Below, in pieces: positions 18,758 to 62,766 of a DNA stretch of 64,000 nucleotides. The first letter of the stretch is position 1, and every line of letters begins with the position of its first letter. Below the pieces are notes generated by a model that made no database searches, was not told where the DNA came from, and saw only the letters and a list, made by a program, of their open reading frames with translations. Source of the stretch: a virus; the IMG/VR virus record IMGVR_UViG_3300017917_000199, positions 1-64,000 of that record, one strand, 5' to 3'. Both the position numbers and the translations under genes were made by a program.

Positions 18758-19327
18758 TTATTGAAAGATGTGATGGTTATCTTTACCGTATACTTTAATG
18801 TATTTTCCAGCAAGTGCATCGGCCATCACCTCAATTGGGCTACCTGGATAGCTGTCACCTGGCTGAATCATGTTTAATTCACTTTGGCGACAATGAACCA
18901 TTTCGTGGAAAACGGTTCTAAGGATATCTACTAAGTTACGGTTCTTTGCGTATACCCAAACTTCGTTAGTTCCTTCGGTATGACGACCTGTGTGGTGACC
19001 ATCTTGTGCCTCCTCGGTGTCCATACTTAGTTCTATTTTGGGTATTGTTTTTAGATGTAGTCTGGGTGCTGCCCATTTTACAAATTTATCTACTTCATCT
19101 TGTAAATCACAAGTTGTATTCTCATCTAATTTAGACTTGATCCAATCGTCTGGAGTGCTGTGAAACTTGCGTACAAATAAATCATGTAATGCTTTACCTG
19201 TTATCTTATGCTTGCTGGCTACTTTACGCATTAATTTATCAATGGTATCATAGTCGTGTTTAGCCAAAGAAGGTAACTTCTTAGCTAATTCTATTTCAGG
19301 AGCTTCATGTATTTCAGAGTAACGCAT
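18758..19327 (-). CDS. Zinc metallopeptidase with capsid-targeting-like N-terminus
   Basis: 189 residues. HEMVHCRQ (141-148) is the zincin HExxH helix and SPIEVMADALAGKY (163-176) offers the downstream Glu (E166) as third ligand, a gluzincin-like layout. N-terminus MRYSEIHEAPE matches the pattern of other proteins here: short amphipathic segment then IHE|A, a possible prohead-protease site as in T4 internal proteins. Inference: packaged in the head and injected, where it could cut a host protein. A late element sits 5 bases before the ATG with no SD, so its late mRNA may be leaderless. Confidence 0.72.
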   Translation of the reverse strand: MRYSEIHEAPEIELAKKLPSLAKHDYDTIDKLMRKVASKHKITGKALHDLFVRKFHSTPDDWIKSKLDENTTCDLQDEVDKFVKWAAPRLHLKTIPKIELSMDTEEAQDGHHTGRHTEGTNEVWVYAKNRNLVDILRTVFHEMVHCRQSELNMIQPGDSYPGSPIEVMADALAGKYIKVYGKDNHHIFQ

Positions 19328-19332
19328 ATATG

Positions 19333-19340
19333 TATTTATC
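19333..19340 (-). promoter_or_regulatory. Late promoter GATAAATA, leaderless geometry
   Basis: GATAAATAC on the minus strand, 5 bases from motif end to ATG 19327. T4 late transcripts begin about 6 bases after the element, that is at the start codon. Confidence 0.6.
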
Positions 19341-19429
19341 CCCGCTTACTTTATACGGGAGCCACTAACGCGGGCTAGTGAAATATCGCGGACGCATTAC
19401 CGTACGACAACGGGCCCTAAGGTTGGGTA
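19341..19429. other. GC-rich gene-free spacer with inverted repeats
   Basis: About 90 bases between the SNase stop and the metallopeptidase late promoter, clearly richer in G+C than its surroundings. CACTA and TAGTG flank an 8-base loop, and several CG-rich half-sites can pair. No open frame and no tRNA T-loop sequence. May be the structured 3' end of the SNase operon or a small RNA. Confidence 0.35.
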
Positions 19430-19864
19430 TTAGTTACACCAGGATTGCTTTGCATCCCCATAATATTCACGTGCGTATCCGTTAGCAATTAATGCTGAAC
19501 GTAGACTTTGACCGTTTAGTATAATATCACCTAAAACACGACCACCAAACTTATCCCAATCATATAACACAACTTGGCGCTTTTGACTGGCACTGATTAA
19601 TTCTTTTGTAAACTTACTTGCTGCCTGACCACGAGCATCCTCAGCAGGACATTTTGCTCTGAATCCTTTTTCAGGAGTATCAACACCGTAGATACGAACA
19701 GCCAATTCTTTCTTCAATGGTGCTGGTAAGAATGGAGCTTCAATAACAACAGTATCACCATCACTTGCTCTTAGTATATTTGCATCATACATAACACCTT
19801 GTGGTTGCTTTTGTGCAAATGCTAATGTTGGTAATAGTAATAATGTTATTAGTAAGTTTTTCAT
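19430..19864 (-). CDS. Secreted thermonuclease-like nuclease (SNase fold)
   Basis: 144 residues. Signal peptide MKNLLITLLLLPTLAFA with cleavage before QKQ. Mature domain has RASDGDTVVI, RIYGVDTPEKG (Arg, Asp and Glu of the active site) and FGGRVLGDI with the second catalytic Arg. Calcium-dependent DNA/RNA hydrolysis expected in periplasm or outside. ATGA-coupled behind the 182-residue gene. A periplasmic nuclease made by a phage could exclude other phage DNA or salvage nucleotides. Confidence 0.85.
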   Translation of the reverse strand: MKNLLITLLLLPTLAFAQKQPQGVMYDANILRASDGDTVVIEAPFLPAPLKKELAVRIYGVDTPEKGFRAKCPAEDARGQAASKFTKELISASQKRQVVLYDWDKFGGRVLGDIILNGQSLRSALIANGYAREYYGDAKQSWCN

Positions 19865-20409
19865 GGTACATCCCTTGAGGTCATTGTTGAATCTATTTTT
19901 CTAAACACTTCGTTTCCAGTCCAACGCCACGGACTTTGTGCTGTTTCTTCACCTAATTCATATGCTTTGGGATTTATAAGTAAAAATTCTGTTCCGTTAC
20001 TAGACTCTCTAGTTTTTATGTCCCAGTTGGGTAGTAGACGTTTAACCATTTTAGCATACAATCCGGTGCGTGAATCACCTTTAGATGAAAATGTGATTTC
20101 TAAAACTTTGTTACCGTATTCTTCTAAAAAGTTTCTAGTAATATCTACAACAGTTGACATTACTTCTGCTGAATTTCCAGTACCTGTCTTACCAAACAAA
20201 TCTTTGTTGCCTTCATGCTCGTCATCACGCTTTACTCGAAATATAATTTCCCAACGTGTTGGATCATGTTTCAAATACGTGTATGCATACCATAGATAGT
20301 TAACGCCACCAACAGTGAAATAAGCAGTTGCTTCTTCACTGCCACGAAATCCCCATTCCCAGTTCTTACCGGGTTTGAATAATTCAGTTATAAACTCAGT
20401 AGCTCTCAT
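19861..20409 (-). CDS. Capsid-signal protein with domain shared with the 733-residue NTase protein
   Basis: 182 residues. Begins MRATEFITEL, the same nine residues as the next gene upstream, ending at ITE|L. The body has TGNSAEVMSTVVDITRNFLE followed by ITFSSKGDSRTGLYAKMVKR. The 733-residue protein at 24182-26383 has a matching block (GDAQRVFATVLHAIQEFL, then ISFSASKE and SRAKLYDRLVKR), so this is a stand-alone copy of that module. Function unknown. ATGA overlaps on both sides tie it to the GNAT-kinase and SNase genes. Confidence 0.65.
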   Translation of the reverse strand: MRATEFITELFKPGKNWEWGFRGSEEATAYFTVGGVNYLWYAYTYLKHDPTRWEIIFRVKRDDEHEGNKDLFGKTGTGNSAEVMSTVVDITRNFLEEYGNKVLEITFSSKGDSRTGLYAKMVKRLLPNWDIKTRESSNGTEFLLINPKAYELGEETAQSPWRWTGNEVFRKIDSTMTSRDVP

Positions 20410-21404
20410 CTTTTATAATATTGTTGCAAGACATTGCTGTTAAATCCAACGTCAACAATGACAGGATTGCCTTTATATATGCCCCAGTTTGCGGCTCTAG
20501 TAAAGTCTCCTAACTCAACATCAAATGAACTATTCAATTCAGCAAGTTTGTTTGCATACTCGGAACAGGTTTCAATGTCATCGTCACTCATGCCTTGCTC
20601 TCGTAATTTATCTGCATAACCTTGAGGTAATCCTAGATAGCGTTTTTTACCTGTAATTGATGTTGCGTAGTTCACTAAGAAAGTTAAACTAGGACATTTT
20701 AACAAACTACACAATTGCTTTTCATTTGCCTTAGTAGCCATTTCAGTATGAATCCAACTTGGTTCACGATTCTGTTCATCATAGTCAATCAATGGGATTA
20801 GTATGCCCATTTGGCTAGCATAACCATCATCTAATATACTTGCTTCAACACTATTCTGTGCTAAGCCTTTTTGGTTCTTAGCAATTTTTAATACTGTAGG
20901 ACGACCTTCATATTCAATGATAGTAGCAACACGACTAGATCCAGTACCTAATTTCTTAGCACGGTCTAAGGCATACTGTAATCTTGACTTGAATGTAGTT
21001 TTTTGCTGACGCATCTGCTCTGGGTCCCAATCAGCCGGGAGAGGCATCTCATCAATTACTTCAGTTGCTTCCCAAACATATGCATCTTCACCGCGATGTT
21101 TATCCCAGAATCTACTACCAGCATTAGTTTGGTCGTGACTTCTATTAATAACGTAACCTTCGTTCTTTAGAAAGTCATACATTGACTTAGCAATGCCACG
21201 ATTGCGATGGTCATCATGGACCCAAAGCATTTGTGGATATAATTCTTTATCTTCTTTAACAAATTCTACGAAAGCCAATGGAGTTTTAGTAGCAGGATCA
21301 TATGCTTTGATTTTTAATGCGCTATTGTTGAAGGCATACCCCATAATCAAACCATTGTACCTGGCTATCTTTTTGTCTTCAGTAATAAACTCTGTGGCTC
21401 TCAT
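20406..21404 (-). CDS. GNAT acetyltransferase fused to a kinase-like domain, with capsid signal
   Basis: 332 residues. MRATEFITED is the capsid-targeting-like start (ITE|D). GNAT domain about 15-110: LAFVEFV, then LWVHDDHRNRGIAKSMYDFL, the acetyl-CoA-binding R/Q-x-x-G-x-A loop. About 150-325 resembles a small protein-kinase fold: LGTGSSRVA glycine loop, VLKIAK with K173, and NWGIYKGNPVIVDVGF with D318 in the metal-binding position. The HRD loop is not clear. Inference: an injected dual modifier of host proteins, analogous in delivery to T4 Alt. Coupled to dps upstream and the 182-residue gene downstream. Confidence 0.7.
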   Translation of the reverse strand: MRATEFITEDKKIARYNGLIMGYAFNNSALKIKAYDPATKTPLAFVEFVKEDKELYPQMLWVHDDHRNRGIAKSMYDFLKNEGYVINRSHDQTNAGSRFWDKHRGEDAYVWEATEVIDEMPLPADWDPEQMRQQKTTFKSRLQYALDRAKKLGTGSSRVATIIEYEGRPTVLKIAKNQKGLAQNSVEASILDDGYASQMGILIPLIDYDEQNREPSWIHTEMATKANEKQLCSLLKCPSLTFLVNYATSITGKKRYLGLPQGYADKLREQGMSDDDIETCSEYANKLAELNSSFDVELGDFTRAANWGIYKGNPVIVDVGFNSNVLQQYYKR

Positions 21405-21841
21405 TCACGCTCTTTTTTCAAAATACTACGAATGAACCAAGCCTTTTTGCCGTACAAGTCTTGTAATTCAGCCATATAATTTTCAATGCCGTGTTGGTTC
21501 TCGTTAGCAGCTTCATCAAACATTGCTGTTACTAATTGAAGCATTGTTTCACAATCCTGCAATGTTTCAGCGAACATTAGTTCAGCACGAGGAATCTTTG
21601 TTTGGTCTTGAATGATTGATAACTGACTGTAACGAGTTAAACTACCGGGTGTGTAATGGCCTAGTATTCTGATATATTCTGCAATCTTGTCGATAGTACC
21701 TGCTACATCACCGTATAAGTTATCAAAAAACTCGTGGTATTGCGGAAAGTTGGAACCTTCTACGTTCCAATGAAAATTTTGACTTTTAATAGCAAAACTC
21801 TGTGTGCTTGCTAGTAACACTTTTAAATTGTCTGATAACAT
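21401..21841 (-). CDS. dps: Dps-like ferritin-fold protein
   Basis: 146 residues from ATG 21841 (MLSDNLKVLLASTQ). Dps signature: KSQNFHWNVEGSNFPQYHEFFDNLYGD-type first helix pair with the ferroxidase His/Asp/Glu set (H at NFHWN, D/E in the following helix), then ETLQDCETMLQLV and a final helix. Forms dodecamers that oxidise iron and cover DNA. The start makes a TAATG overlap with a 15-codon leader. In a phage it could shield DNA from oxidative attack, or act in the virion. Confidence 0.82.
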   Translation of the reverse strand: MLSDNLKVLLASTQSFAIKSQNFHWNVEGSNFPQYHEFFDNLYGDVAGTIDKIAEYIRILGHYTPGSLTRYSQLSIIQDQTKIPRAELMFAETLQDCETMLQLVTAMFDEAANENQHGIENYMAELQDLYGKKAWFIRSILKKERE

Positions 21842-21888
21842 TATCTTGGGTATCCTTTTAAATTCCAATAGAAGTCATAATCTTTCAT
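21841..21888 (-). CDS. 15-codon leader peptide coupled to dps
   Basis: Encodes MKDYDFYWNLKGYPR. Its ATG overlaps the stop of the 473-residue gene (TAATG) and its stop overlaps the dps ATG (TAATG). The dps SD (AAAAGGA) lies inside it. Exact tiling suggests that it is translated and serves to carry ribosomes into dps; an independent peptide function is possible but unproven. Confidence 0.5.
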   Translation of the reverse strand: MKDYDFYWNLKGYPR

Positions 21889-23309
21889 TATTTAAGGCCT
21901 TTCATAATGGCACTTTCGTTTTTCTTCTTGCCAGCGCAATGTGCTTTTTGACTGAAGCCTTTAGGATTGCTACAGTTGATGCTGTCTTTGTATTTTTGAC
22001 TCCACTTTTCATCAATCTGTTCTTCTTCAATACTTTCACTCTTTGTGCCCCAGTTGTTAGCGCCTTTTTTACGACACTGAACTAGTGCACCGCTTGCATA
22101 AGCACTAGGCCATACTTTATAACGGCTCTTTACTTTATAGTAGCAAGCATCTTTCTTTTCGTTGATTAACAACTCACTGAACATAGGTCCACCGCATTCT
22201 GGGCATTGCTGTGCTTCTTCGACCTCTTGTTCTTCGTTGGTATTCTTTACACAGTTTGGATATTTCTTACCAAACATAGTTTTCATACCTTCTTTGTGAT
22301 AGCCTTTCCAACATGCTTCGTCTAACTTATCTTGTAACTTGTTCAACGCTAATTCAAGTTCTTGGACTCTTACTCCGCGACCTTGTTCTTTAGCTATTGC
22401 AATAAGATTCTTTAGACTATTAATCTTATCTTGTAGCATCGTTTCTTTAGTCGTTGGACTAGCATTGTCTAATGCACCTTCGTTACTCTTTTTCTTAGTA
22501 GCAACATTCTTAGCAGGACCTCTGCGTTCTGGATTAGGATCTTCTCTACGCTTTTTAGCAGCCGCATACTTACGGCCCTTCTTACCTAAGGCATGCGCTT
22601 TAGCTTGTGGCAAACACTTTGGCTTACCTTCACTATCATCACCTCTAGCACAAGCACCGCGAATCTTACCATCTGGACCAAATCTTACCCATTTTTCTTT
22701 GAACCATTTGCGTAAGTTTTCATCTACTTGTTCTTCCGCCACACCTTCTTCTTTCTTGGGTGTATTGACTGGAACAGTTTTATATACACGCTTTACAGGA
22801 TCCCAAACAGTTTTGCGTTCACCTTGTTTAGCCATTTGCTTTAACGCTTGAACCGCTGATTGAAATTTAGGACCATAGTCAGCTTCTTTAGTTTCGTTCA
22901 TACCTTCAGCATTGCTGATACGCTTTTTTAGTTGACTGATTTGGTCAGCAATTCTTTGCTGCTTACTTACAAATGAATAGTCATCGCTGTATTGATAGTT
23001 AGGATCAAAGCCTTTTTGTAACTGTGCTAGTTGTGCTTTTAGTTGTTCAACATTTTGTTTGTCAGCTTGCATACTAGCTTGCTGTTGTTGTTTTGCAGCA
23101 TCAGTACTTGCTTGCTGTTTTGCACGTTGAGCCTCATCATCCTGTGCTTGCATTACTTTTTCAGCAAAGTATTTGTCATCAGCAGGAATACCATACTTCT
23201 TTGAGTATGCATCTATATTTTTTAATATGTCAGCCTTGCGAGTTCTATACTCTTGCTGCATGGCTGCAATATCAACAGCTTCGGTTAAACCTTTGACAAT
23301 GTTGCTCAT
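21888..23309 (-). CDS. Segmented capsid-signal protein with repeated Cys/Lys modules (DUF5872-like)
   Basis: 473 residues. Start MSNIVKGLTEAVD ends in LTE|A, a perfect prohead-protease consensus. A Gln/Ala-rich coiled coil (about 45-130) follows. Then separate modules: KWVRFGPDGKIRGACARGD with a basic GRKYAAAKKRRE tail (about 210-265), DEACWKGYHKEGMKTMFGKK (about 335-355), CPECGGPMFS zinc-knuckle (about 374), YKVWPSAYASGALVQCRKKG (about 400-420), and CSNPKGFSQKAHCAGKKK at the end. The linkers are Glu-rich with further x-E|A sites (LDE|A, VEE|A). Looks like a string of small DNA- or RNA-binding domains cut apart after packaging. Confidence 0.6.
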   Translation of the reverse strand: MSNIVKGLTEAVDIAAMQQEYRTRKADILKNIDAYSKKYGIPADDKYFAEKVMQAQDDEAQRAKQQASTDAAKQQQQASMQADKQNVEQLKAQLAQLQKGFDPNYQYSDDYSFVSKQQRIADQISQLKKRISNAEGMNETKEADYGPKFQSAVQALKQMAKQGERKTVWDPVKRVYKTVPVNTPKKEEGVAEEQVDENLRKWFKEKWVRFGPDGKIRGACARGDDSEGKPKCLPQAKAHALGKKGRKYAAAKKRREDPNPERRGPAKNVATKKKSNEGALDNASPTTKETMLQDKINSLKNLIAIAKEQGRGVRVQELELALNKLQDKLDEACWKGYHKEGMKTMFGKKYPNCVKNTNEEQEVEEAQQCPECGGPMFSELLINEKKDACYYKVKSRYKVWPSAYASGALVQCRKKGANNWGTKSESIEEEQIDEKWSQKYKDSINCSNPKGFSQKAHCAGKKKNESAIMKGLK

Positions 23310-23310
23310 A

Positions 23311-24138
23311 TTAATCTTTCTTTACTTTCTCGGGAAGACCCTTGTGTTTTGTCTTAGCAAAATCTTTTGCTGCTTTCTTTGGCATTGATTTAGCTACTTT
23401 AGCAACTTCTTTGCTAGGAGCCTTCATATCACCCTTTTGTACAGCATGTACCATGCCCATGAATTTTTGTTGTTTTTTGCTTACAGCTTTTTCATTAACT
23501 TTTTCTGATTCATTTGCCATGCCACCTGCGATGACACCACCTGGAGACATTTCATCAATGACATGTTCATAATCTTTCATGCTTAGTGTTTTACCACGAC
23601 TACCTCTAGCAACTAATTTCTCTGCTAGGTCATGTAGATCCATATCAGTGTTAGCGTCTTCTCTTGCGTATTCTAATAATCTGATTAATAATGGAACATC
23701 TAATTTAACTGTATCTGTGGGGTTCATTGAATTTTCAGGTTTACTCAACAATCCAGGCTTTAGCTTATGACCTTTGCCTACAGCAATAATCTTATCTTCT
23801 TCATGTAAGTCAGCTTCTTTGACAGGCTCAGGCTTATTTTTCATTTCTTTACGAACTTCAGCCTTAGTCTTGCCATACTTCTTTTTGAATTCTTCGTCTG
23901 ATAAACCATCAGGACCACCTTTTAAATCCATAGAAAGTTGCTTTACAGCACCTTCTGTAATTGAATTAGCGAATGGTTTACTTGTTTTCTTGCCCTTGAA
24001 TAAACTACCTACTTTTTGATCTCCGTAGATACTAGCGTTTCTTGTTTTAGTTGCGCCTAAGGGACTTGATACTGTAGCTACAGAACCTGAGCCAGTAGCT
24101 CCTGCAGAAGTTTCAGTAATTATTTGATTGATTTTCAT
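23311..24138 (-). CDS. Segmented capsid-signal protein with C-terminal DUF3008-like module
   Basis: 275 residues. Start MKINQIITETSAG (ITE|T). A second site, NSITE|GAVKQL, occurs near residue 63. The middle (about 140-205) is helical with LIRLLEYAREDANTDMDLHD. The last 60 residues (SKKQQKFMGMVHAVQKGD, then DFAKTKHKGLPEKV) match the small DUF3008 family, and are preceded by KVNE|KAV. Multiple x-x-E sites between compact units suggest processing into several packaged peptides. Late promoter upstream; the 473-residue protein follows in the same unit. Confidence 0.6.
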   Translation of the reverse strand: MKINQIITETSAGATGSGSVATVSSPLGATKTRNASIYGDQKVGSLFKGKKTSKPFANSITEGAVKQLSMDLKGGPDGLSDEEFKKKYGKTKAEVRKEMKNKPEPVKEADLHEEDKIIAVGKGHKLKPGLLSKPENSMNPTDTVKLDVPLLIRLLEYAREDANTDMDLHDLAEKLVARGSRGKTLSMKDYEHVIDEMSPGGVIAGGMANESEKVNEKAVSKKQQKFMGMVHAVQKGDMKAPSKEVAKVAKSMPKKAAKDFAKTKHKGLPEKVKKD

Positions 24139-26545: not shown

Positions 26546-27553
26546 TTACTTAATTTGACTCCAAACTCTTTCACGTATCTGTTTTGTTAGACTGTCTGGT
26601 AATGGTACATAATCTAAGTCTGTAGCATCTTTCTTGCCATTCTTAAACGCCCAGTCAAAGAACTTTAATACTTCTTGGCTTCTTGCTTTATTGTCTGGAT
26701 TTTTGTACATAATCACAAAGCTAGCACTAGAGATAGGCCAAGCATTTTGACCCTTTTGATCCACAATGCTTACACCCATACCAGGAACACTAAACCAATC
26801 AGCACCGTCAGCAGCGGCAGCAAATGTAGTATCGTCTGGGTCAACGAATTTACCTGCACGATTTTGTAACTGTAGATAATTCATATTGTTCTTTTTGACA
26901 TACGCATACTCTACGTAACCAATCGCACCTTTAACTCTATTAACGTTAGCTGCAACACCTTCATTGCCTTTACCACCTACACTGCTTGCAGCTGGCCACT
27001 TGACAGCAGCACCCTTACCTACTTTGTCACTCCACTCTTTACTGACTGCTGCTAGGTAGTCTGTAAAGTTGAATGTTGTTCCGCTGCCATCAGCACGATG
27101 AACTACTGTGATATTTGTATCAGGTAATTTTTTTCCTGGATTTAGTGCAACTAACTTGCTGTCATTCCATTTAGTGATTGTACCTAGATATACTTCTGCT
27201 AGTACAGGGCCAGTAATCTTTAACTCACCTGGTTTGAAACCTTCTAAGTTAATTACAGGAACTGTTCCACCTATAATTGTAGGGAACTGTACTTGATTGT
27301 TCTTATCTAAATCTTCACCTTTGACTGGTGCATCACTTGCTCCAAAGTCAACAGTTTTCATATTAATTTGTTTGATACCACCTGAACTACCGATGCTTTG
27401 ATAATTTAAATTATTTCCAGTTGCTTTCTTATAGCTTTCAGCCCACTTAGCATAAACTGGATACGGGAAAGTCGCGCCAGCGCCTGTAATGTCCGCACTG
27501 AATGCGACTGTTGATATTAACAATGCACCTAAAAGTGTTGTCAGTTTTTTCAT
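26546..27553 (-). CDS. pstS: Periplasmic phosphate-binding protein
   Basis: 335 residues from ATG 27553 (SD AAGGAG, 8-base spacing); the longer frame upstream is untranslated leader. Signal peptide MKKLTTLLGALLISTVAFS, mature start ADITGAGATFPYPVYAKW. Phosphate-binding features: SIGSSGGIKQI, DFGASDAPV, and HRADGSGTTFNFTDYL. It captures phosphate for the host PstCAB transporter. A Pho box upstream and terminators on both sides make this an autonomous, phosphate-regulated unit. Well known as a phage auxiliary gene in phosphate-poor waters. Confidence 0.95.
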   Translation of the reverse strand: MKKLTTLLGALLISTVAFSADITGAGATFPYPVYAKWAESYKKATGNNLNYQSIGSSGGIKQINMKTVDFGASDAPVKGEDLDKNNQVQFPTIIGGTVPVINLEGFKPGELKITGPVLAEVYLGTITKWNDSKLVALNPGKKLPDTNITVVHRADGSGTTFNFTDYLAAVSKEWSDKVGKGAAVKWPAASSVGGKGNEGVAANVNRVKGAIGYVEYAYVKKNNMNYLQLQNRAGKFVDPDDTTFAAAADGADWFSVPGMGVSIVDQKGQNAWPISSASFVIMYKNPDNKARSQEVLKFFDWAFKNGKKDATDLDYVPLPDSLTKQIRERVWSQIK

Positions 27554-27587
27554 GTAATATTCTCCTTGTGTGTTTGTATTACACAAA

Positions 27588-27593
27588 TATTTA
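27588..27593 (-). promoter_or_regulatory. -10 element of pstS promoter
   Basis: TAAATA on the minus strand, 11 bases after the Pho box, the distance used by PhoB-activated promoters. No other -35. Confidence 0.5.
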
Positions 27594-27604
27594 CTAGAAG
27601 AATT

Positions 27605-27622
27605 GTGACAATACTGTGACAA
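27605..27622 (-). promoter_or_regulatory. PhoB (Pho box) operator
   Basis: Minus strand: TTGTCAC-AGTA-TTGTCAC, two perfect 7-base direct repeats spaced by 4, i.e. an 11-base period, fitting the Pho box consensus [CT]TGTCA[CT]-N4-[CT]TGTCA[CT]. Host PhoB-P would activate pstS from it. Confidence 0.85.
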
Positions 27623-36605: not shown

Positions 36606-37154
36606 TTATAGTCCTGCTATTGTTTTAAAATCACGAATTTCTTTGTCTTGGCTATCAAAAATATCTTTAGTTTCTAATCCAGCAATTTCACGCATTTCGT
36701 TTATTTCTTGTTCTTTTTCAACCTTCATACGATATTCGTGCGGGCTTAAAACGATTGCTGATTTTAGAAGACTTACATCTGGCTTGTATTCTTTATCATC
36801 CACAACAACTGTCCATTCATTTAATTTAAGTGCGGTTAATGTTTTTAAATCACTTAGTAATTCTACGATTCTTTCTGGAACTTTCGTTCTACGATCCATT
36901 TCTACAAAAACCAAATACTTACCCGGAGAAACTTCCCCTTCGCTTACTTGTGCATCTAACACAAAATCATATCCGCGTTCAAACCAATCAGCTAAATCAC
37001 TACCTGCTAATTCACCGGAGACAGTAAATGCTAATGTAACTATCTCACTATCTTCACCCATTTTAGCTGAGTATTCATCAACCGTAACTTCGGGAACGAT
37101 TTGTCCTTCAAAATCGTGATAGTCTAACCCTTCAAATAACTTACTATTGCTCAT
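36606..37154 (-). CDS. Conserved hypothetical with duplicated [RT]-x-IAGL tail motif
   Basis: 182 residues. Beta-rich front with acidic character; the C-terminus contains EINEMREIAGLETKDI and again EIRDFKTIAGL, an internal repeat. The 706-residue head protein ends in a similar DWKKLAGIK, so this short motif recurs. Could be a docking peptide for head or tail assembly. Not otherwise recognised. Confidence 0.6.
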   Translation of the reverse strand: MSNSKLFEGLDYHDFEGQIVPEVTVDEYSAKMGEDSEIVTLAFTVSGELAGSDLADWFERGYDFVLDAQVSEGEVSPGKYLVFVEMDRRTKVPERIVELLSDLKTLTALKLNEWTVVVDDKEYKPDVSLLKSAIVLSPHEYRMKVEKEQEINEMREIAGLETKDIFDSQDKEIRDFKTIAGL

Positions 37155-50860: not shown

Positions 50861-52981
50861 TCACTTGATACCTGCTAACTTTTTCCAGTCATTAACTGAT
50901 TCGTTAGTAGCACCATTGTAACCCATGCGGTCATTCTGACCTGCGATTACAGGGACTGTTGTTTGACCGGTTGATTTCTTCTTATTCAAACCACTAGAAA
51001 TAACATCAGTCATAAACTTGATATCAGTTTCAAATGTATCATCAGCACTGTTTGCATAAGATTCTTCTAAATCTTTTTCTTCTTCGGCTGCTGCTTCATA
51101 AGATGCTGCTTCAGCTTCGTGTTCACCTTTAGCGTAGTTTGCAGATGCTTCGTCTTCGGCAGCTTCTGCATTTTCGTCAGCAGAAGTTTCTTGTTCTTCT
51201 GTTTCGTCTTCTGCTACTTGGTAAGTACGTTGATCCATTGTTTCTGTTTCTTCAACAGCTTCTTCGTCATCACATCCGCAATCAGATTTTCCGCATGCAT
51301 CACATACTTCTTCGTGGTCTTCATCTTCAAAGTCGTGGTCATGACCAGCAAATCCTGCTTCTGGACCTTTTGGCTCAGCACCTACTACCTTTTTGATTAA
51401 GTTCATCATGCCATCATGGTCATCAACTACATCAATCTCAGCACCACCTGTACCGATTTCTGCAGGCTCACCTTTATCTACTGTCATTGGTGCTGCTGCA
51501 GGAGCTTCTTCACCACCAAACAAACCTAAACCAGCTTGCTTAATTAATGCTAATAGTTGGTCAGCTTCACCGTCTTGTGCAGTTACTGAAACTGAATCAG
51601 GCATTCCTTGTTGACCTTTACTGATAGAAACAGTCATACCTTCACTAACTTCTTCTTTACCTTCTAGTAAAGCATTTAGTTCTTTGTCCCATGATTCAAA
51701 AGCAAATGGGCTTTCAGTTACTTTAGCATCATAATTTGTTTTGTCTGTAAATGTTTTGCCACCAACACTGAACTTACCACCTTTTGGTGTCTTGGCAAGT
51801 GCTGCTGTAAATGCATTGCCTTCTTCTACACCATCGTGTTCAGCTTGGTCAGCCATGCCACTTACTGTTGCTGGAGGTGTTGTTTCACCTACATAACCTT
51901 GTATTGGCATCTGTCCATAGCACTCATCTAGACCTTCTTTGTAGCCTTCGTGATAATGTCTTGCTTCTTCCATATCGTCATAACGGCAGTTATAACCTTC
52001 TTTTGCAAGAGCATGTGCCTTACCTGCTAATCTTGCAGATTGTAATTTATGATTCATACCTTCATCAACTTTCTTTTTGTCTTGTGCGGCTTTTTTCATT
52101 GACTCTTTCTTGTTGCCGTCTTTGTCTAAATCTAAGAAGTCAGGTTTAGCTTTACCTTCTAATGTAGTTGCGCTACGTCCTGCACCTAATCCTGCACCTG
52201 CTGTGCTATCATCTGTAGGGATCGTACCTTCTTCAATGCTTTCATGTGTAGCACGTAGTTTAGCTAACACTGCACCCGCTACTTTTTCACCGCGTTCTTT
52301 AGAACCATAACGCTTTGCAGCGTCAGCAGCAATCTTAGCAAATTGCTTACCTGGCTTACCGATATCTTTACCAGCACGCGCTTTCTTAGCACTGTAATCA
52401 CCTGTAGCTTCATCCATGTCATCTTCTGACATAGTTTGTTGACCTTGTTGTACAGGCTGACCTGGTTTTTGTTGTTGAGTAGGAACAACAATCTGTGCTT
52501 TCTTTTGTTGTGCTAGTTTACTGATAGCATCTTTCATTGCTTGACCAGCAGGACTGTTATCATCAATGTGTAAGAAGCCTGCGCCAGTTTGCTGTGTGTC
52601 GCCTTGCTTACCAACTACTGGAATAGCTTGTTGAGCCATCATTTCATTCAATGCTGCATCCATTGAATCAAAATATTCTTTTAGTCTGTGCTTCTTAGAA
52701 ACAGTGCCTACTTCTTTCTTAGGCTTTTGTCCAGCACCTAAAGCAGCACCAAGACTCTTAGTATCAAACTTTTTCTCTTCGCCTGTCTCACTGTCAGCAT
52801 TCTTCTTAGGACGACCGCGACCCTTTTTAGGTGCATCAGCTTTTACTTTTTTGCCTTCAGAATCTTCATCGTCTTTGCGACCATAGCCACCTGGCTCAGC
52901 AGTGTGAATACGACCTTTACCTGTTTCTTTTGTAGCTTCATTCAACTGGTCTAGTTGTGATAATAAACTTTTGAAATCCAT
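50861..52981 (-). CDS. Large segmented head/core protein with capsid signal
   Basis: 706 residues, very acidic overall. MDFKSLLSQLDQLNEATKE ends in LNE|A, a prohead-protease consensus. Segments separated by Glu-rich sites: basic KKGRGRPKKNAD AT-hook-like patch (about 52-64); MDE|ATGDYSAKKARAGKDIG module (about 190-245); DFLDLDKDGNKKESMKKA (EF-hand-like Asp loop, about 284); ARHYHEGYKEGLDECYG; a CDACGKSDCGCDDE metal knot (about 575); poly-Glu/Ala stretch; final DWKKLAGIK. Probably a scaffold/core polyprotein cut into internal head peptides, comparable in role to T4 gp22/gp67/gp68. Terminator follows. Confidence 0.62.
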   Translation of the reverse strand: MDFKSLLSQLDQLNEATKETGKGRIHTAEPGGYGRKDDEDSEGKKVKADAPKKGRGRPKKNADSETGEEKKFDTKSLGAALGAGQKPKKEVGTVSKKHRLKEYFDSMDAALNEMMAQQAIPVVGKQGDTQQTGAGFLHIDDNSPAGQAMKDAISKLAQQKKAQIVVPTQQQKPGQPVQQGQQTMSEDDMDEATGDYSAKKARAGKDIGKPGKQFAKIAADAAKRYGSKERGEKVAGAVLAKLRATHESIEEGTIPTDDSTAGAGLGAGRSATTLEGKAKPDFLDLDKDGNKKESMKKAAQDKKKVDEGMNHKLQSARLAGKAHALAKEGYNCRYDDMEEARHYHEGYKEGLDECYGQMPIQGYVGETTPPATVSGMADQAEHDGVEEGNAFTAALAKTPKGGKFSVGGKTFTDKTNYDAKVTESPFAFESWDKELNALLEGKEEVSEGMTVSISKGQQGMPDSVSVTAQDGEADQLLALIKQAGLGLFGGEEAPAAAPMTVDKGEPAEIGTGGAEIDVVDDHDGMMNLIKKVVGAEPKGPEAGFAGHDHDFEDEDHEEVCDACGKSDCGCDDEEAVEETETMDQRTYQVAEDETEEQETSADENAEAAEDEASANYAKGEHEAEAASYEAAAEEEKDLEESYANSADDTFETDIKFMTDVISSGLNKKKSTGQTTVPVIAGQNDRMGYNGATNESVNDWKKLAGIK

Positions 52982-61595: not shown

Positions 61596-61961
61596 TTAAT
61601 CGGAATAATCTTCTAATTTTAAAATCATGTTTGGAAGAATATCACCCATGTACATACATTGGTCTGTTTCTCTAAGACTTTCTATCCAATTTTCTTCCGT
61701 AGTGTGATCTATGTCGCCCATCAATTTTGATTTATCTAATTTGTTGAGGTCTACCGTCACTAAGGTAATGTTGTCATAACCAGTTCTTTCTTGGTCAGAC
61801 TCAGCATATTCTAACGCAAGGTCGGGATTATCAGTCAAAAATACTGAGTGTTGTCTGCCAGCTTTCAAGCCATGTTTTTTTATAGTTTCAATTGATTCTG
61901 AGGTTCCGTGCCATAATATATTATGACCAGTATCTTCAAAAAGTATCTCGCTTATTCTCAT
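61596..61961 (-). CDS. ADP-ribosyltransferase-like protein with capsid signal
   Basis: 121 residues. MRISEILFED is a capsid-targeting-like start (LFE|D). Then ILWHGTSESIETIKKHGLKA (15-34), VFLTDNPDLALEYAE (40-54), ITLVTVDLNKLD and MYMGDILPNMI, an order seen in ART/KptA-fold proteins (HGTS for the first NAD contact, aromatic/Leu-Thr middle, late acidic region). The catalytic Glu is not certain. T4 Alt is an injected ART that modifies host RNA polymerase, so this is a strong functional parallel. Follows gp13 by one base. Confidence 0.6.
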   Translation of the reverse strand: MRISEILFEDTGHNILWHGTSESIETIKKHGLKAGRQHSVFLTDNPDLALEYAESDQERTGYDNITLVTVDLNKLDKSKLMGDIDHTTEENWIESLRETDQCMYMGDILPNMILKLEDYSD

Positions 61962-61962
61962 G

Positions 61963-62766
61963 TTATCCTTGTACCCATGTTAATGGTTGACTGTAATCAA
62001 CATAACGCTTGAGTTCGTCAATTAGTTGTGCTTGCAATTCTCTACTTTCGTTCTTCATTGCTGTACCATTTAATGTTGTGCCACCGCCTGGCCCTGCAAT
62101 GCTACCAAACTTCTCACGTGCCTCACCGATGATACCCTTCAATACGGCTAAAGTAAAGTCACCAATCCAAACACCTGCACCTGGATCTTGTAACAACACT
62201 GTTTCAGGACGTTGAACATCAGCCCAAATAAGAATTCTTTCACCAGAACCCTTGAAGTCACGAACTAATCTCAATACCTTTGTGACAGGATCGAATGTAT
62301 AAATGACATAACCACCGAACATACGAGCAGCCAACTCGACATAACCAGCATAGAAGTCATATGTCGCCATACCACCTGTATAGTTGTAATTCAATAGGTA
62401 TGTGTTTAGAATCGCACTTGAGAATGGGTCAAAACTTGTAGAACTTGGACCTGTTTCAAAACCAACTGTTCGTCTGAAAACTGAACGAACATTAATGAAT
62501 TCTTGAGGCAATGTATAAGTGTCAACATTCTTAATGACTGTCATTAATGTGTAGGATTCAGCCGTAGCGTTTTGCGCTCTTTGGCGATAGATTTTGATTG
62601 CATAGTTATACGCAGCCTCAAAGTGCTGAGGATCTAATTCTAGGTCAATAATTCCATCGCCTAAACGATATTTCAAGTTTTGAAACAGTGCTTGTTTCAA
62701 TTCGTCTAGTGTTAGATTAGACGGAGTTGCTAAAATACTAGCTGTTTGATTTGTTGCTGTGGTCAT
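61963..62766 (-). CDS. gp13: Neck protein, gp13-like
   Basis: 267 residues (T4 gp13: 309). LGDGIIDLELDPQHFEAAYN near the N-terminus matches T4 '[20 protein letters not shown]'; TLPQEFINVRSVFR and WIGDFTLAVLKGIIGEAREK follow gp13 order, ending in LTWVQG. Seals the DNA-filled head at the neck. Late promoter upstream. gp14, gp15 and gp20 are not in this window, so the T4 gene order is broken here. Confidence 0.82.
   Translation of the reverse strand: MTTATNQTASILATPSNLTLDELKQALFQNLKYRLGDGIIDLELDPQHFEAAYNYAIKIYRQRAQNATAESYTLMTVIKNVDTYTLPQEFINVRSVFRRTVGFETGPSSTSFDPFSSAILNTYLLNYNYTGGMATYDFYAGYVELAARMFGGYVIYTFDPVTKVLRLVRDFKGSGERILIWADVQRPETVLLQDPGAGVWIGDFTLAVLKGIIGEAREKFGSIAGPGGGTTLNGTAMKNESRELQAQLIDELKRYVDYSQPLTWVQG

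What the first reader, a model, noticed from the sequence alone, without database searches (positions are those of the whole stretch)
61596..61961. Compact ART-like protein with capsid signal, a possible minimal Alt
Seen: LFE|D signal followed directly by an ART/KptA-like HGTS fold in only 121 residues. Known: T4 Alt is about 680 residues and ADP-ribosylates host RNA polymerase right after injection. Inference: the same strategy reached with a much smaller domain, placed beside neck gene gp13.
Basis: partly seen in the sequence, partly recalled or inferred. Interest (0 to 1): 0.75.

Follow-up and report, generated by a model that had tools for sequence, protein, structure and literature searches.

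The report
Small head-packaged ADP-ribosyltransferase of a phage
A large T4-related water phage carries a tiny predicted ADP-ribosylating enzyme behind a short tag that probably loads it into the virus head, so it could enter the bacterium with the DNA and alter host molecules at once; this is a small, distantly related counterpart of a known phage-T4 strategy, and an unstudied lab phage has a similar protein in its particle.

Summary
The ORF is real (121 aa, minus strand, 61961 to 61596; dN/dS about 0.02-0.03) and has the ADP-ribosyltransferase (ART) fold. The AlphaFold model (pLDDT 87) matches the C-terminal NAD lobe of Tpt1/KptA (Z 12-13), then ART toxins and Arr. It is not an Alt: T4 Alt is of the R-S-E clade, while this family reads H18-F/Y41-Q101. 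It is not Tpt1: the RNA lobe is absent. The capsid signal, unremarkable in one protein (5.5% chance), gains force by comparison. In relatives the same domain follows different leaders, nearly all ending in L/I-x-E, the T4 gp21 cleavage motif. One relative is fused behind a signal plus GNAT domain; in several others the gene sits in runs of genes with such leaders. LIMEstone1 ORF173, with the same layout (MKTFLQYLQE|S + ART-PolyVal), is a mass-spectrometry-confirmed virion protein. Best reading: a head-packaged, injected mono-ART effector of a new small family. Target and activity are unknown. The neck-gene position is shared only by the two closest relatives.

The parts
61596..61961 (-). 121-aa ORF (with stop): short leader plus compact ART domain
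   Evidence: ORF and translation; dN/dS; IMG/VR relatives at 56-88% identity
61935..61961 (-). Putative capsid-targeting leader, residues 1-9, MRISEILFE, with predicted prohead-protease cleavage after E9 (ISE5 also fits the motif)
   Evidence: L/I-x-E is the gp21 motif (PMC9026906); leader disordered in the models (pLDDT about 40); different leaders ending in the same motif in relatives
61599..61928 (-). ART domain, residues 12-121
   Evidence: AF2 pLDDT 87; Z 12.3, rmsd 2.0 over 87 residues to Tpt1-NAD 8tfz; Z 12.8 to 8tg6
61908..61910 (-). H18 codon, motif I (HGTS) on strand 1
   Evidence: Invariant in 13/13; aligned with the HGT of Tpt1
61839..61841 (-). F41 codon, motif II (VFLT) on strand 2; Tyr in L014 and in remote relatives
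   Evidence: aligned with the second His of Tpt1 VHLS/T
61659..61661 (-). Q101 codon, proposed motif III residue (TDQCMY) at the start of a late strand; assignment inferred
   Evidence: Invariant in 13/13 and kept in LR756508 and phage G gp53
61963..62766 (-). Neck / head-tail adaptor gene, 1 nt upstream, probably same operon
   Evidence: phrog_211 E 3.9e-22; conserved spacing in L001/L002
60900..61532 (-). Deoxynucleoside monophosphate kinase gene downstream (context)
   Evidence: phrog_139 E 3.7e-49
18758..24138 (-). Cassette of other proteins with similar leaders (MRYSEIHEA, MRATEFITEL, MRATEFITED with GNAT, MSNIVKGLTEA, MKINQIITET), probable co-packaged cargo; sister phages carry the ART gene in this kind of cassette

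Best explanation
It is a virion-packaged ADP-ribosyltransferase effector. It is made as a late protein from the neck/tail operon. The first nine residues (MRISEILFE) bind it to the prohead core, and the T4-type prohead protease cuts after E9. The mature ART domain of about 112 residues then stays in the head, is ejected with the DNA, and uses host NAD+ to mono-ADP-ribosylate a host macromolecule, most likely a protein, in the first minutes of infection. Shown here: the ORF, its conservation, the ART fold (by prediction), the conserved NAD-site motifs, and the leader pattern across relatives. Supported by analogy: packaging, from the LIMEstone1 ORF173 mass-spectrometry result and the clustering of leader-bearing genes. 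Inferred: cleavage, ejection, catalysis and the kind of target.
For: Fold: the best Foldseek hits are all Tpt1/KptA (E 2e-5), and VIA gives Z 12.3-12.8 to the C-terminal NAD lobe, then ART toxins and Arr at Z 8-9. Profiles agree weakly (DUF3990 8e-4; ART-PolyVal in 12 of 13 members, best 4e-4). Family: 13 proteins with H18, LTDNP, Y52, D83, W92, E98-T-D-Q-C and Y104 conserved. Leader: with strict L/I-x-E at residues 8-13 (background 5.5%), 7 of 8 leader types match, or 5 of 6 when grouped conservatively, p 3e-6. L032 is MRATEFVTE + GNAT + ART in one chain; in L034 six of seven genes on the ART gene's strand carry the motif against 1 of 13 on the other strand, p 0.003 with the ART gene left out. 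Independent cases of leader + ART: LIMEstone1 ORF173 MKTFLQYLQE|S, Pfam ART-PolyVal 5e-12, annotated 'confirmed structural protein'; Atu_ph07, among the nearest cultured relatives, MKWQDLSE|GIKVYHGS; jumbo phage LR756508, MVRLYRILKE|V beside two more such leaders. Atu_ph07 and LR756508 carry the gp21-type protease and gp23. Literature: phage ARTs are predicted to be often head-packaged (PMC9503650) and GNAT is a typical neighbour of ART in injected polyvalent proteins (PMC5512222).
Against: No virion proteomics exists for this virus. gp21 and gp23 were not found in the 85-kb record, a fragment. One relative (L014) has no leader, and L032 has VTE instead of L/I-x-E. The loose motif is not enriched over all N-termini of the genome. 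LIMEstone ORF173 rests on one unique peptide. With Gln instead of Glu at motif III the enzyme may be weak, an NADase or inactive. Sequence scores to ART-PolyVal stay below Pfam's cut-off.
Confidence: 0.62

Rival explanations
1. It is an intracellular late enzyme, not packaged; the LFE is a chance match and the gene acts during late infection, for example against host defence or superinfecting phages.
For: L/I-x-E near an N-terminus occurs in about 5.5% of proteins by chance, and 12% for the looser form, which is not enriched genome-wide; L014 lacks the leader; several relatives sit among what look like replication genes (L003-L013).
Against: The motif recurs in nearly all differing leaders in front of the same domain; the gene clusters with other leader-bearing genes; a homologous architecture is in the LIMEstone1 virion.
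Confidence: 0.17
2. It is a Tpt1/KptA-like enzyme acting on nucleic acid ends (RNA 2'-phosphate removal or ADP-ribose capping of DNA/RNA).
For: Tpt1/KptA are the top structural matches, including complexes with NAD and DNA; phrog_5470 'RNA 2'-phosphotransferase' at E 1e-3.
Against: Only the NAD lobe is present; in CthTpt1 Arg18, His19 and Arg68 lie in residues before the aligned lobe (PMC6333775) and have no counterpart in 121 aa; motif II is F/Y rather than His. Capping of nucleic acid ends without that lobe is not excluded.
Confidence: 0.1
3. It is a catalytically dead ART-fold protein that serves as a structural internal head protein or binds NAD or ADP-ribose as a decoy.
For: Motif III appears to be Gln rather than the usual Glu.
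Against: Strong conservation of the pocket motifs and very low dN/dS; Q is an accepted residue of the H-Y-[EDQ] clade (PMC9503650).
Confidence: 0.11

Closest known systems
LIMEstone1 ORF173 / Kuttervirus moki_205 family (PHROG 4700; Pfam ART-PolyVal PF18760)
   Same: T4-type leader ending in L-Q-E|S (LIMEstone) directly followed by a compact ART domain; LIMEstone1 ORF173 found in virions by mass spectrometry
   Different: ORF173 appears to have Glu at motif III and scores above the Pfam cut-off; the window family is H-[FY]-Q, below the cut-off, about 24% identical to moki_205; hhalign probability 78%
T4 Alt (Alt/VIP2 clade ART)
   Same: ART with an N-terminal prohead-protease propeptide, packaged in the head and injected (literature); the proposed way of working is the same
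   Different: About 680 aa against 121; R-S-E active site against H-[FY]-Q; the C-terminal propeptide of Alt was not looked for here; no evidence of an RNA polymerase target
Tpt1/KptA RNA 2'-phosphotransferase
   Same: Best structural match, the NAD lobe (Z 12-13), HGT motif
   Different: RNA lobe and three of the four essential residues missing; H-F-Q rather than H-H-h
ART of polyvalent proteins / N4-like vRNAP (Roseovarius phage RPP1)
   Same: HGT...F-T...A..YA motifs; injected context; GNAT as neighbour domain (as in L032)
   Different: There a domain of a giant protein; here a stand-alone 121-aa protein with its own leader; tblastn E only 0.6
T4 internal proteins IPI-IPIII with capsid-targeting sequence
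   Same: Short leader of about 10 aa ending at L/I-x-E, joined to unrelated cargo
   Different: T4 IPs are not known to be ARTs; here leaders and cargo appear exchanged between genes

Membership tests
ART superfamily | ART fold of the NAD-binding lobe | tested here: met
   Two AF2 models, Z 12-13 to the Tpt1 NAD lobe, 8-9 to ART toxins and Arr
ART superfamily | Three active-site positions on strands 1, 2 and 5 | tested here: inconclusive
   H18 and F/Y41 are clear; Q101 is inferred from conservation and secondary structure, no coordinates were superposed
ART superfamily | NAD binding / ADP-ribosyl transfer | not testable with these tools
   Needs purified protein
T4 Alt/VIP2 (R-S-E clade) | Arg on strand 1, Ser on strand 2, Glu on strand 5 | tested here: not met
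   H18 and F/Y41 at the first two positions; clade definition from PMC5512222 and PMC9503650
T4 Alt/VIP2 (R-S-E clade) | N-terminal propeptide ending in the gp21 motif | tested here: met
   ILFE|D at residues 6-10, recurring in relatives
Tpt1/KptA | N-terminal RNA (winged-helix) lobe | tested here: not met
   Only 11 residues precede the ART lobe; the well-ordered part aligns only with Tpt1 residues of about 86-182
Tpt1/KptA | Arg-His-Arg-Arg tetrad | tested here: not met
   Three of the four residues are Arg18, His19 and Arg68 of CthTpt1 (PMC6333775), outside the part present here
ART-PolyVal (PF18760) | Score above Pfam cut-off (31.2 bits) | tested here: not met
   18.4 bits, E 0.004; 12 of 13 family members match weakly
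T4-type capsid-targeted cargo | Leader of about 10 aa ending at L/I-x-E | tested here: met
T4-type capsid-targeted cargo | gp21-type protease in the same virus | tested here: inconclusive
   Not in the 85-kb fragment; present in Atu_ph07 and LR756508
T4-type capsid-targeted cargo | Presence of the cleaved protein in virions | not testable with these tools
   No proteome for this virus; LIMEstone1 ORF173 is the nearest case

The most novel reading that the evidence does not exclude
Large T4-related phages carry an exchangeable arsenal of injected effectors. A short L/I-x-E leader is a portable loading tag, and cargo such as ART and GNAT domains is swapped among leaders and gene positions, so the injected arsenal of uncultured phages could be read directly from sequence.
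Probability: 0.45. Interest if true: 0.72.

Novelty: new member of a known kind. Interest (0 to 1): 0.52.

Why it matters
It links a stand-alone ART of only about 110 residues to the T4 head-targeting signal and to an already detected but unexplained virion protein family in Ackermannviridae (LIMEstone1 ORF173). That makes 'do small ARTs enter with the DNA?' directly testable in lab phages, and suggests that leader scanning can reveal other injected effectors in large uncultured phages.

Tried and rejected
Rejected: 'minimal Alt' as kinship (R-S-E not met); Tpt1 membership (RNA lobe and tetrad missing); neck synteny as a family property (only the window, L001 and L002 share it). Led nowhere: tblastn of the window protein in 50,697 phage records (no match); genome-contig scan (no relative); gp21 and gp23 in the window record and in ten relatives' records (none; fragments); T4 late promoter TATAAATA (one site in 64 kb, not near the gene). 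The loose leader motif showed no genome-wide enrichment (14 of 101 against 12.2 expected); the strict one did (13 against 5.6). Atu_ph07's virion list (131 proteins, PMC6102473) could not be checked for its leader + ART protein because the table is a supplement. The leader-position script stopped at the first match in each protein, so its distances were not used.

Full report
WHAT IS THERE. The finding lies on the minus strand: an ATG ORF from 61961 to 61596, 121 aa, MRISEILFEDTGHNILWHGTSESIETIKKHGLKAGRQHSVFLTDNPDLALEYAESDQERTGYDNITLVTVDLNKLDKSKLMGDIDHTTEENWIESLRETDQCMYMGDILPNMILKLEDYSD. It starts 1 nt after the stop of a neck / head-tail adaptor gene (phrog_211, E 3.9e-22) and is followed by a dNMP kinase and the tail sheath. 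The record is an 84,961-base virus fragment; its DNA polymerase and sheath are closest to the jumbo T4-related phages Phosso and Atu_ph07. Against L001 and L002 (87-88% identity) dN is 0.07 and dS is saturated, so the protein is under strong purifying selection.

FOLD. AlphaFold2 on the window protein with four relatives gives pLDDT 82, and with twelve relatives pLDDT 87; in both the first 10-11 residues are disordered and the rest is well ordered. Foldseek's first fourteen PDB matches are all Tpt1/KptA, followed by ART toxins. VIA gives Z 12.3-12.8 to Tpt1, with rmsd 2.0 over 87 residues to the NAD complex 8tfz, essentially restricted to the C-terminal NAD lobe; ART toxins and Arr follow at Z 8-9. 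Sequence profiles agree weakly: DUF3990, ART-PolyVal and PTS_2-RNA, all below Pfam cut-offs. The ART fold is therefore established as far as prediction can do so.

ACTIVE SITE AND CLADE. The family alignment (13 proteins) keeps H18-G-T-S, [F/Y]41-L-T-D-N-P, Y52, D83, D85-H86, W92, E98-T-D-Q-C and Y104. HMMER aligns H18 and F41 with the two histidines of Tpt1. L014 and the remote relatives in LR756508, phage G and moki have Tyr at position 41, and Q101 is kept in LR756508 and phage G gp53. I read the triad as H-[FY]-Q, which fits the H-Y-[EDQ] clade (PMC9503650) and not the R-S-E clade of T4 Alt. The Q101 assignment is inferred from conservation and strand position; no coordinates were superposed. 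The RNA lobe of Tpt1 and three of its four essential residues (PMC6333775) are absent, so it is not expected to be a 2'-phosphotransferase.

THE LEADER. T4 gp21 cuts after L/I-x-E, and a leader of about 10 residues suffices for packaging (PMC9026906). For one protein the motif means little: strict L/I-x-E with E at residues 8-13 has a 5.5% background, and a looser version is not enriched at the N-termini of this genome. The case is comparative. In front of the same domain the relatives carry MSLRDYILLVE|E, MNMRNYMDLVE|N, MRATEFISE|R, MRDLMIIIE|N, MLSKEFIFE|N, MKINEILTE|S and MKTIREYLNLLE|N. Seven of eight leader types, or five of six in a conservative grouping, match the strict motif (p about 1e-8 and 3e-6; the grouping is mine, made after seeing the leaders, and leaders of related phages are not independent). 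L014 has none and L032 has VTE. In L032 the domain is fused behind MRATEFVTE and a GNAT domain homologous to the window's own protein at 20406-21404. In L026, L033, L034 and L035 the gene sits in runs of leader-bearing genes; in L034 six of seven genes of that strand match, against one of thirteen on the other strand, and the contrast holds without the ART gene (p 0.003). The gene occurs in at least four different neighbourhoods, so the neck position is not general.

INDEPENDENT CASES. A weak hit led to Kuttervirus moki_205, annotated as a putative structural protein. Its LIMEstone1 counterpart, ORF173 (CCD57734.1), reads MKTFLQYLQE|SEHPVFGNLLLYHGS..., scores 5e-12 to ART-PolyVal and is annotated and tabulated as confirmed by mass spectrometry, though with one unique peptide. 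The adjacent ORF174 (MPTSKLFE|S) is also confirmed. Atu_ph07 encodes MKWQDLSE|GIKVYHGS..., and jumbo phage LR756508 encodes MVRLYRILKE|V... beside MRLKKLLVE|S and MAQLKKLLVE|E. Both carry the gp21-type protease and gp23.

MECHANISM. The best-supported chain is: late expression with the neck operon, loading into the prohead by the leader, cleavage after E9, ejection with DNA, and mono-ADP-ribosylation of a host macromolecule. Fold, conservation and leader pattern are shown; packaging is supported by analogy; late expression, cleavage, ejection, catalysis and target are inferred. ARTs have been proposed as commonly head-packaged (PMC9503650), and GNAT as a usual neighbour of ART in injected polyvalent proteins (PMC5512222).

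VERDICT. A new small family within a known kind, head-packaged phage ARTs. It works like Alt in the proposed strategy but is not an Alt. The widest reading, a portable loading tag with exchangeable cargo, was suggested for T4 internal proteins (PMC9026906) and is visible here, but remains untested.

Noticed in passing
window 18758-24138 (-): Run of genes with T4-type leaders (MRYSEIHEA, MRATEFITEL, MRATEFITED with GNAT, MSNIVKGLTEA, MKINQIITET) around a Dps/ferritin-like gene (21401-21868): a likely cassette of packaged proteins.
   Followed up: partly
window 50861-52981 and 36606-37154 (-); L068 3-1277: A C-terminal motif (DWKKLAGIK; DFKTIAGL; DLKRLAGIKK) is shared by a 706-aa window protein, a predicted virion protein with leader MSNSKLFEG, and the Atu_ph07 gene just upstream of gp23: possibly a prohead-core tag.
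   Followed up: partly
window 1-64000: The T4 late promoter core TATAAATA occurs once against 6.9 expected by shuffling: depletion or a different late promoter.
   Followed up: no
window 26546-27622 (-): PstS-like phosphate-binding protein (PBP_like_2, E 6e-35) with what looks like a signal peptide: a probable host-derived auxiliary gene.
   Followed up: no
L015 900-1412 and L033 2869-3876: The same unusual leader segment (SRKKSRKIRRVSGYYF in L015, SRKKSKRIRRTGGYYF in L033) precedes an ART domain in one phage and a different 335-aa protein in another: apparent cargo exchange.
   Followed up: partly
L039 1635-3384 and 4741-5229 (LR756508, a 484-kb phage): Three consecutive genes with xLLVE|/ILKE| leaders, the third an ART-like protein, shortly before a tail-tube-like gene (tail assignment by eye, not searched).
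   Followed up: partly
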